64,000 nucleotides of DNA, from positions 1,674,001-1,738,000 of the forward strand of contig NZ_CP020809.1 in the NCBI RefSeq assembly GCF_002157835.1, read 5' to 3'. Positions within the stretch are counted from its first letter, which is position 1; each line of letters starts with the position of its first letter. The position numbers and the translations under genes are program-made. This document shows positions 17,342 to 22,219 of this stretch, one piece after another. The notes under the pieces were generated by a model. The model was not told the origin of the DNA, ran no database searches, and worked only from the letters and a program-made list of their open reading frames with translations. Origin of the DNA: Mycobacterium dioxanotrophicus. Its GTDB lineage: Bacteria > Actinomycetota > Actinomycetes > Mycobacteriales > Mycobacteriaceae.

Positions 17342-18970
17342 TCACACCTGCCGGTAGCGACCCTCGCGCTCGACGTCCTGCCACCACGGCCACCGGCGCG
17401 CGAGAGCCAGGGCCGTCGCGGGCATGGCGGCGAACTCCACACGGACGCCCGCCGCGGCCAGATCGGCATCCAGGTCGCGCAGGCCGTCGAGGATCGTGGT
17501 GCTGATGCTCAGCTGCCGGGAAAGGTCCACTACCAACGTCTTTGGCGGCGGATCGGCCGACAGCGCCATGACGCGCATCATCTTGGTGTTGGCCCTCAGG
17601 TTCGCGGTGTACAGCGCCACCTGGGTCCTGAGCACCAGAGGATCAGCCGGATGGACCAGTTCGCCCTCCGGCCCGTCGGTACTGATGCCGTGGTGGTCGA
17701 CGACCTGCACCACATGTGGCTGATTTGCGTTGTGCAACACCGCATACAGCGTCAGCAGCACCCCGACGGCGACGGCAGGCAGCAGGCCCACGGTCAGCGC
17801 CACGGTCATCACCAGGATCGCCAACGTGAACTCGCGGCGGCTGAATGTCCACAGCTGCCGCAGCGCCCGCACCTCGATCAGCCCGAGAACCGGAACCAGG
17901 ACCATGGCACCGAGCGTCGCTTCCGGCAGCTTGGACAACACCGGTGCCAGCAGCAACGCCACCACCACCGCCAGCGCCGCGGTCACCAACCCCGACACCT
18001 GGCTGCGGGCACCCGACCGGGTGTTCACCTGGCTCTGAGAGAAACCGCCCGAGGGTGGCAGCGCGTGGAAGAACGCACCGGCCACCGCGGCCAGCCCCAG
18101 GGCGCTGAGCTCCCGGTCCGGCTCGATCTGCGCATCCTCGCGGCGGCGGATGCCGCGAGCCGCCGACACGGTCTCCAAGAACGCCATCATCGCGATCGCC
18201 AGCGCCCCGGGGAACAGATGGCCGACGTGATCGAACGCCGGCCATCCGGGAACCGGAAGTCCTTCGGGCACAGCGGGTATCAACTTGACGCCGAGTGCGG
18301 ACAACCCGCCGAACGAGGCGCCCGCGATACCCAGCCCGGCGACCACCAGCGGGCCAGGAACTTTCGGGTAGGCGCGGCCGATGAACCACAGCAGCCCGAT
18401 GCTGGCGAGTGAGAGCACCACGGTCATGAGATGGGCATGGCCCAGTTGGCGTAGCGCCGAGGCAAGGACGCGGAAGAAGCCTTCGTGATTCGGATCCGGT
18501 GTCACACCCAGCAGTTTCGGCAGCTGACCGGCCGCGATGGTCAACCCGACACCGGCCTTGAGGCCGATCAGGGTGGCCTCGTTGATGTTCTCCACCACCG
18601 ATCCCAGCCGCAACACCCGGGCGACCAGCAGGATCACCCCGACGAGCAGCGTCAAGGTCATCAAATCCGAAGGGGCGCCCGATGATCCGGCCAGCACGCC
18701 CGCACCCAGCATCGTCGACGCCGTCAGCGTCGCGACCGTCGACGTGGTGCTGACGCTGACGCTGCGCGAACCGCCCGTGAACGCATAGACGATCATCGGC
18801 AGCATGCAACTGTAGAGGCCGAATTCGACGGGCATGTTGGCCACCGTCGCGTACGCCATCGCCTGCGGAATGACCACGGCGCCCGCCGCGAGTCCGGCGA
18901 ACACGTCACTGCGCAACCATTGTCGTTGGTAGGGCAGCAGCGCAGGGCTGGGCGCAACGCGAAATCGCAC
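17342..18970 (-). CDS. SulP/SLC26-family anion transporter with STAS domain
   Basis: A protein of about 542 residues. After a short cytoplasmic N-terminus comes the SulP signature region (DVFAGLAAGAVVIPQAMAYA), about 10-12 membrane segments, and a C-terminal STAS domain (about 430-540; TLVVDLSRQLSISTT). Family members carry sulfate, bicarbonate or dicarboxylates; the anion here cannot be told. Several in-frame starts exist; GTG 18970 is preferred because it gives a normal N-terminus, while ATG 19021 would overlap the divergent gene. It is divergent from a second SulP gene. Confidence 0.88.
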   Translation of the reverse strand: MRFRVAPSPALLPYQRQWLRSDVFAGLAAGAVVIPQAMAYATVANMPVEFGLYSCMLPMIVYAFTGGSRSVSVSTTSTVATLTASTMLGAGVLAGSSGAPSDLMTLTLLVGVILLVARVLRLGSVVENINEATLIGLKAGVGLTIAAGQLPKLLGVTPDPNHEGFFRVLASALRQLGHAHLMTVVLSLASIGLLWFIGRAYPKVPGPLVVAGLGIAGASFGGLSALGVKLIPAVPEGLPVPGWPAFDHVGHLFPGALAIAMMAFLETVSAARGIRRREDAQIEPDRELSALGLAAVAGAFFHALPPSGGFSQSQVNTRSGARSQVSGLVTAALAVVVALLLAPVLSKLPEATLGAMVLVPVLGLIEVRALRQLWTFSRREFTLAILVMTVALTVGLLPAVAVGVLLTLYAVLHNANQPHVVQVVDHHGISTDGPEGELVHPADPLVLRTQVALYTANLRANTKMMRVMALSADPPPKTLVVDLSRQLSISTTILDGLRDLDADLAAAGVRVEFAAMPATALALARRWPWWQDVEREGRYRQV

Positions 18971-19019
18971 GGCGCAAGTATGGCCCGCGTAGACCGTCGC
19001 CGTGGCAGGGTTGTGCACC

Positions 19020-20753
19020 ATGAGTGCGCCACCGAACGCGGCTTCGAGAGTGTCGGGGGCGGTGCGTAGTCTCGGCCGTCCCAGCCCACGCGATGTCATC
19101 GCCGGTCTGGTGACCGGGCTGTTCTCGATCCCGGAAGGCATGGCTTACGCCAGTATTGGCGGGTTCAACCCGGTGGCCGGGCTGTATGCAGGTGTGGTCC
19201 CCGGCATCATCGGCTCCCTGTTCGCCCGCACGGTGCTGATGGTGACGACGTTGACGAGTGCCATCGCACTGTCGTCGCGCAGCGTTCTCAAAGAAGCCGG
19301 GCTCGATCCGCAGGACCCGGCCAACGTCGCGGCCCTGGCGCTCGTGGTCGGTGCGGTGATGTTGCTGTTCGGATTGCTGCGGTTCGGCTCGATCATGAAC
19401 TTCGTCTCCAACGCCGTAATGACGGGCTTCTCCACGGGTATCGCGCTGCAGATCGTGGCGGGCGTGCTCGGCGACGCCACCGGCTACAAACCGCAGAGCG
19501 GCAACACCATCGGCAAGTTCATCGACTCGTTGGCGCACATCGGGCTGTGGCACGGCACGGCCGTCGCGGTCGCGGCAGGCACGGTCGCGGTGTGGGCGGT
19601 GTTCCATTTCGTCAAGCCTCTGGAATCGTTCGCCACCCTGATCGCGCTGGTGGTCGTCACCGCCGTCGTGGCCGTCGCGCACATCGACGTCGAAACCGTG
19701 GGCGACATCGCGTCGATCACGAATTCCCTTCCCCCGGTGACCATCCCGAATTTCTCCGCGATGCCGGAGCTGCTCGTGGGCGGGGTTGCCGTCGCGCTCG
19801 TCGCGCTGGCCCAGGCCGCGGGAATCTCCGCAGCGGTGCCCAACCCCGACGGCAGCCGCACCAACATGAACGGCGACTTCCTGGCCCAGGGCGCGGCCAA
19901 CTTCGCAGGCAGCTTCTTCGGTGCGCTGCCCACCGGAGGCTCGCTGTCGCGCACCGGGGTGGCCACCTCAGCAGGCGCGCGCAGCCGCTGGACCGGCATC
20001 TTTGCCGGTATCTGGCTGGCGGTGCTGGTCCTGGTCGCGGGCTCGGCCGCCGAGATCATCCCGATGCCGGTCATAGGCGGGCTCATCCTGGTGATCGGCG
20101 CCGAGCTGGTGGTGGGCCGGCTACCCGACATCAAGCTGGTGCTGCGGGTCGCGCCGCTGTCGGCGGTGGCAATGCTGATCACGTTCGCGGCCACCACACA
20201 GTTACCGCTGCACACCGCGATCCTCATCGGTGTCATCACATCGCTGGTGCTGTACTGCGCCAAGGCCGCCCAGGCCGCGCGACTCATGGCGCTAGAACCG
20301 GCAGCCGACGGCGGATGGCGGCAGGTGCCCGTGCCCGCGCGGTGCGCCAGCGACGACGTGACGGTGCTGCACTACGCCGGGGTTGGGCTGTTCGCCGAAG
20401 TGGCCCGCATCGACGAGACCTGGCCGCGGGCCGACGGCACCGCCAACGCTGTCGTGGTGCTGAGCCTTCGCGCGTTGCCCGACGTGCCGTCGTCGGTGAC
20501 CATCAAGGCGTTGCGGAGATGGGCCGGCCAGTTGACGGCCAACAACGGCAGGCTGATCATCTCCGGCGTGAATCCGGGCACCGCGGAGGTGCTGCAGCGC
20601 GGCGGGCTCGACGACGTGCTGGGCGACGACGGCATCGTTGCCGCCACCGACCGGGTCTTGGGCGCCCTCGACATCGCCGTCGAGCGCGGACGTGCCTGGG
20701 TGGCCGCCCAGCGCGGCGAGAGCGGTGGTTCGGCGCAGCCTGATTCGAACTAG
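19020..20753 (+). CDS. SulP/SLC26-family anion transporter with STAS-like domain
   Basis: A 577-residue SulP transporter, only distantly similar to its divergent neighbour. The N-terminal signature DVIAGLVTGLFSIPEGMAYASI is followed by membrane segments and by GALPTGGSLSRTGVATSAGARS, the conserved loop. A C-terminal STAS-like domain (about 440-560) contains VVLSLRALPDVPSS and GVNPGTAEVL. The start at ATG 19020 is within about 50 bp of the divergent start, so both promoters must lie inside coding or very short leader DNA. Its TAG shares a CTAG with the convergent lpqV stop. Confidence 0.9.
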   Translation: MSAPPNAASRVSGAVRSLGRPSPRDVIAGLVTGLFSIPEGMAYASIGGFNPVAGLYAGVVPGIIGSLFARTVLMVTTLTSAIALSSRSVLKEAGLDPQDPANVAALALVVGAVMLLFGLLRFGSIMNFVSNAVMTGFSTGIALQIVAGVLGDATGYKPQSGNTIGKFIDSLAHIGLWHGTAVAVAAGTVAVWAVFHFVKPLESFATLIALVVVTAVVAVAHIDVETVGDIASITNSLPPVTIPNFSAMPELLVGGVAVALVALAQAAGISAAVPNPDGSRTNMNGDFLAQGAANFAGSFFGALPTGGSLSRTGVATSAGARSRWTGIFAGIWLAVLVLVAGSAAEIIPMPVIGGLILVIGAELVVGRLPDIKLVLRVAPLSAVAMLITFAATTQLPLHTAILIGVITSLVLYCAKAAQAARLMALEPAADGGWRQVPVPARCASDDVTVLHYAGVGLFAEVARIDETWPRADGTANAVVVLSLRALPDVPSSVTIKALRRWAGQLTANNGRLIISGVNPGTAEVLQRGGLDDVLGDDGIVAATDRVLGALDIAVERGRAWVAAQRGESGGSAQPDSN

Positions 20754-21202
20754 CCGCAGAGCTGATCGGCCGCCGCGCGGACCGCGACGATCACCGCAGC
20801 CTGACGGCCGGGCTCCAGCTCCGCCCAGGCCTTGTTGTAGGTGCCGGGCCCCGGGATCGCACCAGGGGTCTGCAAGGAGGCCAGATACGGCTCGATCTGC
20901 GCCTTGGGGTCGCCGCCCTTCTCGTCCATCCACACCTTGGCGGCGTGGCAGGCCTGGAAATACTCCTCTTCAGAGGACTGGGCGTCGGCCCCCACGGCGG
21001 TGGTGACCCCGCCCGGCGAGACCGCCGCTTCACCGGGGGAGGCCGTGGGTGTCGCCGTGCGGGTAGAGGCGGTCGACGGTGTCGCGGGGGCGCCGGATGG
21101 CTGCCCCTGATCGCCGGTCGACGAGCATCCCGTCAACAACGTGAGGCCGGTGACGGCGATGGCTCCGGTCGTCCACCGCACGGCCGAGGTGTTACTGCGC
21201 AT
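20750..21202 (-). CDS. lpqV: lipoprotein LpqV
   Basis: A 150-residue lipoprotein. The signal sequence ends in LLTGC with Cys26 as the lipidated residue, followed by a Ser/Thr/Pro-rich linker (about 27-75) and a small globular domain with EYFQACHAAKVWMDEKGG and a C-terminal DQLCG; two cysteines could pair. The name rests on synteny with M. tuberculosis Rv1064c between the patatins and the cysteine dioxygenase gene, and on the lipobox. Function is unknown. It is divergent from the poly-cysteine leader ORF. Confidence 0.82.
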   Translation of the reverse strand: MRSNTSAVRWTTGAIAVTGLTLLTGCSSTGDQGQPSGAPATPSTASTRTATPTASPGEAAVSPGGVTTAVGADAQSSEEEYFQACHAAKVWMDEKGGDPKAQIEPYLASLQTPGAIPGPGTYNKAWAELEPGRQAAVIVAVRAAADQLCG

Positions 21203-21230
21203 GACGCCAATCTATGCAACACTGGCCGCC

Positions 21231-21275
21231 GTGACGGAACGGACCAGTTCTCAGGACTGTTGTCGGGCTCGCTAG
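21231..21275 (+). CDS. short leader ORF with tandem Cys codons (candidate cysteine-responsive attenuator)
   Basis: GTG ACG GAA ... GAC TGT TGT CGG GCT CGC TAG encodes MTERTSSQDCCRAR, 14 codons with two adjacent cysteine codons near the end. AACACT ends 7 nt before the GTG, the spacing of a leaderless start, although its first base departs from TANNNT. The ORF ends 48 bp before a cysteine dioxygenase gene. Leaderless poly-cysteine short ORFs have been described in mycobacteria as cysteine-responsive attenuators of sulfur genes; this one fits the pattern and stands before a cysteine-degrading enzyme. Confidence 0.55.
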   Translation: MTERTSSQDCCRAR

Positions 21276-21323
21276 CGCGCCCTTGACCAACCCTGTCCGT
21301 ACGTCAGTTCTGGAGTTTCCCGC

Positions 21324-21848
21324 ATGGTTTCCACCCTTGCCCCTGCCGTGGTGCCCGCAGTATCCGCACCGACCCGGCTGCGCCTGCCCGATCTGCTGCA
21401 CACCACCGACCGCGCCGCCGACGATGTCCTCTCCGGCCGCTACGACCGGCTGTTGCGCGGCCTGCCGCACGACGAACGCTGGTACACCCGGCTCGCCGGC
21501 GACGACGAGTTGGACATCTGGCTCATCAGCTGGGTGCCGGACAAGTCCACCGAACTGCACGACCACGGCGGCTCGCTGGGCGCGCTGACGGTGGTGTCCG
21601 GTGCGCTCACCGAAACCCGCTGGGATGGTGAGGCATTGCGGCGTCGACGCCTGTCGGCCGGTGCCCAGGCCGCGTTCCCGCTCGGATGGGTGCACGACGT
21701 GGTCCGCGCACCAGCGCCGATCACCGGCCCGACATTGAGCGTGCACGCCTATTCGCCACCCCTCACCGCCATGTCGTACTACGAGGTGACCCAACGGAAC
21801 ACGTTGCGCCGCAACCGTACCGAGCTGACCGACGCGCCGGAGGGGTGA
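21324..21848 (+). CDS. cysteine dioxygenase-family cupin protein (Rv1065-type)
   Basis: A 174-residue cupin of the cysteine dioxygenase family, which oxidises L-cysteine to cysteine sulfinate with O2 at a non-haem iron. The three iron ligands are His79 and His81 in TELHDHGGS and His124 in GWVHDV. Length is typical for bacterial enzymes. A GGAG at about 21313 precedes ATG 21324. The rhodanese gene follows after two bases, an arrangement (sometimes a fusion) linked to sulfur handling in cysteine breakdown. The poly-cysteine leader ORF upstream suggests cysteine control. A different thiol substrate is possible. Confidence 0.88.
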   Translation: MVSTLAPAVVPAVSAPTRLRLPDLLHTTDRAADDVLSGRYDRLLRGLPHDERWYTRLAGDDELDIWLISWVPDKSTELHDHGGSLGALTVVSGALTETRWDGEALRRRRLSAGAQAAFPLGWVHDVVRAPAPITGPTLSVHAYSPPLTAMSYYEVTQRNTLRRNRTELTDAPEG

Positions 21849-21850
21849 GC

Positions 21851-22219
21851 ATGAGCCGGATCGACGCAGTCTTGGCAGCCGCGCGGGAGCGCCTGCAGCG
21901 GCTGCCTGCCGACGAACTGCCCGCCGCGCTGGCGTCGGGAGCGGTGCTCGTCGACATCCGGCCCGCCGCGCAACGAGCCCTCGAGGGCGAAGCCGCGGGC
22001 GCGCTGGTGATCGAGCGCAACGTCCTGGAGTGGCGGTGTGACCCCACCAGTGATGCCCGCATTCCGCAGGCCGTCGACGACGATGTCTACTGGGTGATCC
22101 TCTGCTCGGAGGGCTACACCTCAAGCCTGGCCGCCGCCGCCCTGCTCGACCTCGGGCTGCACCGCGCCACCGACGTCGTCGGCGGCTATCAGGCCCTGAA
22201 AGTGGCTGAGCTGGTCTAG
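21851..22219 (+). CDS. rhodanese-like sulfurtransferase (Rv1066-type)
   Basis: A 122-residue single-domain rhodanese. The active-site loop reads ILCSEGYTSS with the persulfide-forming Cys85; VLVDIRP is the usual preceding strand. It starts two bases after the cysteine dioxygenase stop with GAGGGGTGAG as ribosome site, so the pair is an operon and probably handles sulfane sulfur from cysteine catabolism. The stop codon shares the tetranucleotide CTAG (22216-22219) with the convergent membrane hydrolase gene. Confidence 0.92.
   Translation: MSRIDAVLAAARERLQRLPADELPAALASGAVLVDIRPAAQRALEGEAAGALVIERNVLEWRCDPTSDARIPQAVDDDVYWVILCSEGYTSSLAAAALLDLGLHRATDVVGGYQALKVAELV

What the first reader, a model, noticed from the sequence alone, without database searches (positions are those of the whole stretch)
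21203..22219. Tandem-cysteine leader ORF in front of a cysteine dioxygenase-rhodanese operon
A 14-codon ORF (GTG 21231 to TAG 21275) contains adjacent TGT TGT codons and ends 48 bp before a gene for cysteine breakdown. A -10-like AACACT ends 7 nt before the GTG, as in leaderless mRNAs. Poly-cysteine leaderless short ORFs are known in mycobacteria as cysteine-responsive attenuators, chiefly for acquisition genes. A copy controlling cysteine catabolism would invert the usual logic: attenuation when cysteine is short would keep a degradative enzyme off or, depending on mechanism, on.
Basis: partly seen in the sequence, partly recalled or inferred. Interest (0 to 1): 0.7.

Follow-up and report, generated by a model that had tools for sequence, protein, structure and literature searches.

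The report
Tandem-cysteine leader before cysteine dioxygenase
A tiny two-cysteine gene sits in front of a cysteine-burning enzyme gene in mycobacteria and most sampled relatives, and its predicted RNA folding would switch that enzyme on when cysteine runs short, opposite to what its annotation suggests.

Summary
GTG 21231..TAG 21275 encodes MTERTSSQDCCRAR; AACACT ends 7 nt before the GTG and 48 nt separate its stop from the CDO start. A leaderless-type uORF with adjacent Cys codons precedes CDO in 147 of 152 distinct upstreams (one miss is a paralogue) and in at least one locus of 16 of 21 other genera sampled, commonly as QECCRG. The Cys codons are mostly the minor TGT. Chance is excluded.

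The mechanism is inferred from folding. The free uORF pairs with the linker up to the Shine-Dalgarno (SD). A ribosome stalled on the Cys codons would cut the cost of opening the RBS by 4.3 kcal/mol (95 mycobacterial leaders; shuffled uORF 1.7), 9.9 in other genera and 4.9 in polycysteine cysA2-operon leaders. The window's own drop is 2.1 and not robust, and the size depends on the region chosen.

Best reading: a Cys-tRNA-sensing translational attenuator of the polycysteine kind, predicted to raise CDO-rhodanese when cysteine is scarce. That clashes with cysteine catabolism and hints at sulfur salvage. The opposite sign remains possible. The primary polycysteine paper was not readable here, so prior listing of this locus is not excluded.

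The parts
21218..21223 (+). -10-like element AACACT, 7 nt before the GTG
   Evidence: AACACT in 104 of 148 distinct leaders, spacing 7 in 139 and 6 in 9 (that script allowed 6-8 and favoured 7 and AACACT)
21231..21275 (+). leaderless-type uORF MTERTSSQDCCRAR
21258..21263 (+). tandem Cys codons TGT TGT
   Evidence: TGTTGT in 133 of 145 leaders with a CC pair, against 25 TGT: 122 TGC in 47 rough gene calls of the window
21252..21259 (+). CAGGACTG, possible 5' strand of an SD-masking helix with 21305-21312 (8 pairs); not in the minimum-energy fold of this leader
21265..21282 (+). small hairpin GGGC..GCCC with the uORF stop codon inside it
   Evidence: fold of L001; average pairing in 95 leaders
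21276..21311 (+). C-rich, G-poor linker that pairs with the uORF in the free leader
21312..21315 (+). GGAG, Shine-Dalgarno of CDO
21324..21848 (+). cysteine dioxygenase family gene (orthologue of Rv1065 by recall)
21851..22219 (+). single-domain rhodanese gene, same strand, start 2 nt after the CDO stop
20750..21202 (-). divergent lipoprotein gene lpqV, 28 nt between its start and the uORF start

Best explanation
The leader is a ribosome-operated translational attenuator. A leaderless mRNA starts at GTG 21231 (inferred from the conserved -10 and spacing). Ribosomes translate the 14-codon uORF. In the free RNA the uORF pairs with the linker and partly with the SD flank, which makes the CDO ribosome-binding site costly to open (computed). 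When Cys-tRNA is short, a ribosome stalls on the two UGU codons, holds the 5' strand and frees the linker and the SD flank, so CDO and the rhodanese are translated (inferred). When Cys is ample the leader refolds, CDO is little translated, and the exposed C-rich RNA could also let Rho end transcription (inferred). The predicted sign is thus ON at low cysteine, as I recall it for polycysteine leaders. That suggests the pair serves sulfur salvage or sulfite supply under cysteine shortage rather than disposal of excess cysteine (inference).
For: Conservation: 147 of 152 distinct upstreams. Other genera: 29 of 38 loci plus L225 with a wider search, in 16 of 21 genera. Codons: TGTTGT 133, TGTTGC 10, TGCTGT 1, TGCTGC 1 of 145. 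Stop-to-start distance 35-57 nt in 145 of 148, CDO starts being picked by script. Folding, RBS -22..+2, free to stalled: 11.4 to 7.1 in 95 non-redundant mycobacterial leaders (drop over 1 kcal/mol in 82, over 3 in 66, opposite by over 1 in 4) against a 1.7 drop for shuffled uORFs; 16.7 to 6.9 in 30 leaders of other genera (shuffled 2.0); 12.4 to 7.5 in 26 cysA2-operon leaders as yardstick (shuffled 0.9). With region -18..+6 other genera still drop from 13.7 to 7.5 (24 of 27 by over 1, none opposite by over 1). Linker-shuffle z mean -1.59, below zero in 93% of 95, and -1.99, 89% of 27, in other genera. A uORF pairs better with its own linker than with swapped linkers (median rank 0.30, reversed control 0.51).
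Against: Region -18..+6 with 60 nt of CDO gave only 8.6 to 7.3 in mycobacteria (42 of 95 easier, 12 harder by over 1) and no change at the SD core. The window leader is not robust: drop 2.1 with 0 of 8 uORF shuffles as large, but 3 of 12 as large, 3 of 12 swapped uORFs as large, and -1.6 with the narrow region. The helix next to the SD shows no covariation in mycobacteria (own 13.2, swapped 13.0), and in the window leader it costs 5 kcal/mol over the best fold. A ribosome at the stop codon opens the RBS as well as a stalled one (6.0 against 7.1), so the sign depends on dwell times. Swapped uORFs keep much of the effect (3.0, own better in 65%). Only two Cys codons are present, against eight in a row in the cysA2 leader. 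The predicted sign is odd for a cysteine-degrading enzyme whose catalytic residues are intact.
Confidence: 0.5

Rival explanations
1. Opposite sign, a starvation lock. Stalling at the Cys codons frees the C-rich linker for Rho (or stops ribosome delivery from the uORF stop to the CDO start), so CDO is turned off only when cysteine is short, as metabolism would suggest; like the E. coli tna operon (recalled) it would be a leader peptide on a degradative operon.
For: Linker 51% C and 18% G, first 60 nt of CDO 45% C and 24% G, later CDO 35/35 in 95 leaders; 47 rough window genes upstream 34/29, first 60 nt 33/31. Stalling lowers the opening cost of the linker from 6.6 to 3.4-3.7. Seliverstov 2005 suggested Rho for mycobacterial cys leaders on poly-pyrimidine grounds, calling the prediction weak (passages of PMC1262725). 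CDO leaders of a Streptomyces-like genus have Cys-rich uORFs and C-rich linkers but little RBS masking (6 loci).
Against: RBS unmasking on stalling is as large as in the cysA2-operon leaders and larger in other genera, which this model does not need. The C-rich tract alone also fits the main model.
Confidence: 0.26
2. The uORF is a translational coupler only: passing ribosomes open the CDO RBS at any cysteine level and the Cys codons sense nothing useful.
For: A ribosome at the stop codon opens the RBS as well as a stalled one.
Against: Tandem Cys codons are kept in 147 of 152 upstreams and occur in 16 of 21 other genera, mostly as the otherwise minor TGT; a coupler would not need them.
Confidence: 0.14
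3. The peptide itself acts (nascent-chain arrest, or a redox or metal-sensing CC peptide).
For: Residues beside the Cys pair are also conserved (ECCRA, ECCRG).
Against: Where the neighbours vary they often keep G in the RNA (GAG, GGG, CGG, TGG before; CGG, CCG, TGG, CAG after) rather than the amino-acid type, which suggests RNA pairing.
Confidence: 0.06
4. Chance or artefact.
For: The ORF is short and GTG-started.
Against: Conservation.
Confidence: 0.01

Closest known systems
Polycysteine-encoding leaderless short ORF attenuators of mycobacteria (Canestrari 2020, doi 10.1111/mmi.14498; paper not held; abstract recalled; citing passages seen in PMC9094748, PMC9031893 and PMC13236596)
   Same: Leaderless-type start, adjacent Cys codons near the stop, upstream of a sulfur or cysteine operon, computed RBS unmasking on stalling
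   Different: Two Cys codons instead of a long run; the operon is annotated for cysteine breakdown; in mycobacteria the Cys-to-stop stretch is less complementary to the RBS (mean helix score 11.7 in 95 leaders against 18.8 in 26 cysA2-operon leaders); NCBIfam leader models match the cysA2 leader but none of five CDO leader peptides tried
Cys leader peptides of mycobacterial cys operons (Seliverstov 2005, PMC1262725, passages read)
   Same: Short ORFs with Cys runs near the stop, no terminator found, pyrimidine-rich spacer
   Different: cys operons; 'cysteine dioxygenase' has 0 occurrences in its main text
Cys-rich leaderless uORFs of cysA2, Rv0485 and nirA (Shell 2015, PMC4633059, passages read)
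   Same: Conserved leaderless Cys-rich uORFs; this genome has those of the cysA2 operon and nirA
   Different: CDO not mentioned: 'dioxygenase' has 0 occurrences in the main text
E. coli tnaCAB leader (recalled; PMC8429421 seen as search listing with start of abstract)
   Same: Leader peptide in front of an amino-acid-degrading operon
   Different: TnaC responds to free Trp by ribosome stalling at high Trp; here a codon-starvation sensor is proposed

Membership tests
polycysteine leaderless sORF attenuators | leaderless mRNA starting at the sORF start codon | tested here: inconclusive
   -10 and 6-7 nt spacing conserved; no 5'-end data
polycysteine leaderless sORF attenuators | contiguous Cys codons | tested here: met
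   two adjacent Cys codons in 147 of 152 upstreams; short compared with eight in the cysA2 leader
polycysteine leaderless sORF attenuators | upstream of a cysteine or sulfur metabolism operon | tested here: met
   CDO_I and Rhodanese
polycysteine leaderless sORF attenuators | stalled ribosome removes structure masking the downstream RBS | tested here: inconclusive
   met by folding with region -22..+2 for the group, weak with region -18..+6 and long context, not robust for the window leader; computation only
polycysteine leaderless sORF attenuators | expression rises when cysteine is limiting | not testable with these tools
   no expression data available
NCBIfam leader peptide models NF042933/NF042934 | match to the model | tested here: inconclusive
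   no match for five CDO leader peptides read at 20 aa or more, four of Mycobacteriaceae and one Streptomyces-like; the bare 13-14-aa peptides are below the tool's length limit
classical transcription attenuator with intrinsic terminator | terminator hairpin and U tract in the leader | tested here: not met
   none found at 21100-21500; no Rfam match there at E up to 1
cysteine dioxygenase | metal-binding His, SxHxY and the substrate Arg | tested here: met
   H79 188, H81 187, S139 186, H141 186, Y143 186 and R56 181 of 188 aligned sequences; roles of these residues and the match of R56 to rat Arg60 rest on recall and on the match start 52 to 56

The most novel reading that the evidence does not exclude
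The enzyme annotated as cysteine dioxygenase, with its rhodanese, is a cysteine-starvation gene in Mycobacteriaceae: a tandem-UGU leader turns it on when Cys-tRNA is uncharged, so the pair serves sulfur salvage (for example releasing sulfite from other thiols) or sulfite/sulfane handling, not cysteine disposal. Control of CDO by Cys-rich leaders exists in a Streptomyces-like genus too, with a different peptide.
Probability: 0.27. Interest if true: 0.75.

Novelty: new member of a known kind. Interest (0 to 1): 0.52.

Why it matters
It adds an operon annotated as degradative to a regulatory class known from acquisition genes, with conservation beyond mycobacteria. The predicted sign turns a routine annotation into a question that can be tested: why would a bacterium make a cysteine-oxidising enzyme when cysteine runs out? 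Either the enzyme has another substrate or role, or the same leader design works with reversed sign.

Tried and rejected
Chance: rejected by conservation. Intrinsic terminator and known RNA family: none at 21100-21500. RNAalifold consensus on a MAFFT alignment: uninformative, the linkers align poorly. SD accessibility in the first test: no change between free (0.22) and stalled (0.24) in 138 leaders; the first opening-energy test also weak. I first read these as a difference from the cysA2 class, then found with a wider RBS region and a matched yardstick that the effect is comparable; both results are reported. Covariation of the helix next to the SD in mycobacteria: none in 83 leaders. Four-Cys pattern in the whole genome: 103 matches against 116 for the reversed pattern, so no help. 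In some searches I scanned the stored strand of own-genome loci, the wrong one for genes on the minus strand, and saw no nirA leader; one search scanned both strands and found one (VTPARNSTTRVLLVARRHVDFKRVCSCCCLP, L194 reverse). Rows dropped: leaders with stop-to-start distance over 57 nt or without CC were left out of the folding sets and leaders at 85% identity or more were thinned from 143 to 95; one search used the 83 of 95 with GGAG; 4 of 30 cysA2-operon loci gave no polycysteine uORF (L340, L359, L363, L366).

Full report
What is there. The window comes from a Mycolicibacterium close to M. brisbanense and M. aquaticum (CDO 99% and 98% identical in L032 and L034). The frame GTG 21231 to TAG 21275 encodes MTERTSSQDCCRAR, with TGT TGT at 21258-21263. 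AACACT ends 7 nt before the GTG, and 48 nt separate the stop from the ATG of a cysteine dioxygenase family gene. That gene matches CDO_I, the next matches Rhodanese, and the divergent gene upstream matches LpqV.

It is conserved. CDO matches occur in 184 of 198 genomes of the genus. From the 191 loci then held, 152 distinct upstreams were scanned for an ORF with adjacent Cys codons and a NANNNT element 5-9 nt before ATG/GTG; 147 have one. The misses are L002 (a paralogue), L101 and L104 (one of the two Cys codons changed), L116 (QEC then stop) and L191 (none). In 148 distinct leaders AACACT is the element in 104 and spacing is 7 in 139, though that script favoured both. In one search, which treated spacings 5 to 9 alike, all but 13 of 147 rows include 7 by my own count of the listing. 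Those loci leaned to the better matches, so a further 33 mycobacterial loci, mostly from the weakest-matching genomes and with some genomes present twice, were scanned: 31 have the uORF (L192 and L274 do not).

It goes beyond the genus. CDO was found in 181 of 251 genomes of the family, in 26 of 31 genera. Of 38 loci fetched from 21 other genera, 29 have a uORF of this class, and L225 shows it. Sixteen of the 21 genera have at least one; g7, g13, g18, g19 and g30 have none in the loci fetched. In g17 (L231) and g8 (L245) the peptide is unlike the rest. The common form is QECCRG, nucleotides CAGGAGTGTTGTCGAGGCTGA. Six were analysed further: linkers 42-53% C and 20-28% G, and stalling changes RBS opening by -0.5 to 1.8 kcal/mol (L298 was not picked up by that script).

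Codons. Of 145 leaders with a CC pair, TGTTGT occurs in 133, TGTTGC in 10, TGCTGT in 1 and TGCTGC in 1. Rough gene calls in the window use TGT 25 and TGC 122 times. The leader thus uses the minor Cys codon nearly always. The codons flanking the pair vary but often keep G, which fits RNA pairing better than peptide sequence.

RNA. In the free state 65% of linker bases pair with the uORF on average, and shuffling the linker loses stability (z mean -1.59; 93% of 95 below zero). In leaders of other genera z averages -1.99 over 27. A uORF pairs better with its own linker than with linkers of other species (median rank 0.30 over 95; reversed control 0.51); relatedness of the species is not corrected for. 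In other genera two helices can be seen by eye: CAGGAGUG with CACUUCCUG beside the SD, and UCGAGGC with GCCUCGA around the stop, with paired changes in L216, L230, L234, L235 and L244 (eye inspection, not a statistical test). In mycobacteria the helix beside the SD does not covary.

Switch. Cost of opening the RBS (-22..+2, RNA to +12), free against a ribosome at the first Cys codon: 11.4 to 7.1 in 95 mycobacterial leaders, 16.7 to 6.9 in 30 leaders of other genera, 12.4 to 7.5 in 26 cysA2-operon leaders found through the first gene of that operon. Drops with shuffled uORFs are 1.7, 2.0 and 0.9. Against this: with region -18..+6 and 60 nt of CDO the mycobacterial mean is 8.6 to 7.3 and the SD core does not change, while the cysA2-operon leaders still go from 10.9 to 7.0 and SD 5.0 to 2.6 under those settings. 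The window leader gives 10.3 to 8.2; 0 of 8 uORF shuffles match that drop, but 3 of 12 do, 3 of 12 swapped uORFs do, and with the narrow region the drop is -1.6. A ribosome at the stop codon opens the RBS equally in all three sets. So the switch is supported for the group, most clearly in other genera, and is weak for this one leader.

Composition. The linker is 51% C and 18% G and the first 60 nt of CDO 45% C and 24% G, against 35/35 later in CDO. Only 3 of 47 rough gene calls of the window, perhaps counting CDO itself, have a start region with as much C over G. This could serve Rho, either when CDO is untranslated (main model) or when the linker is freed by stalling (rival).

The enzyme. H79, H81, H141, S139, Y143 and R56 are conserved in 181-188 of 188 aligned relatives. 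It looks like a working cysteine dioxygenase of the Arg type (class assignment recalled), so the predicted ON at low cysteine is a real puzzle and not explained by a broken enzyme.

Same genome. Polycysteine leaders are present before the cysA2 operon (eight Cys codons) and before the nirA-like gene (missed earlier on the wrong strand).

Literature. Shell 2015 (PMC4633059, passages) names Cys uORFs upstream of cysA2, Rv0485 and nirA, with no occurrence of dioxygenase. Seliverstov 2005 (PMC1262725, passages) describes Cys leaders of cys operons and raises Rho as a weak prediction. The key paper, Canestrari 2020, is not held and its locus list could not be checked. Term searches for this leader or for CDO with leader peptide, uORF or attenuator and for Rv1065/Rv1066 showed no paper on a CDO leader among the rows listed; most lists were capped, and beyond listings I saw only the passages and one outline named by call. 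Novelty is therefore provisional.

Verdict. Observation confirmed. Most likely a new member of the polycysteine attenuator kind on an operon annotated as degradative, with a predicted sign that goes against the annotation.

Noticed in passing
17342-19141 (-) and 19002-20753 (+): Two long ORFs that read as SulP-type permeases lie head to head just upstream of lpqV and CDO; the + one matches Sulfate_transp, the - one was judged from its translation only.
   Followed up: no
genome C1:1667147-1667461, L002 (about 28 kb upstream of CDO, outside the window): A second CDO-like domain, 41% identical, in a 731-aa open frame; no tandem-Cys uORF was found in the stretch upstream of the matched part.
   Followed up: no
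L204:787-879: The cysA2-operon leader of this genome ends in eight Cys codons and matches NCBIfam NF042933; ACAACAACAGGAG at its target RBS mirrors the Cys codons.
   Followed up: yes
L194, reverse strand, position 989: A leaderless-type Cys-rich uORF (..RVCSCCCLP) precedes the nirA-like gene of this genome.
   Followed up: partly
L293, L295, L296, L298, L299, L300, L306: CDO genes of a Streptomyces-like genus are preceded by a different Cys-rich ORF (ending ARCSCCCPSC and the like), with TTGACA upstream in the six printed.
   Followed up: partly
L262-L273 and neighbours: Several mycobacterial CDO genes match in two pieces around residues 127-138, which may be an in-frame insertion (not checked further).
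   Followed up: no
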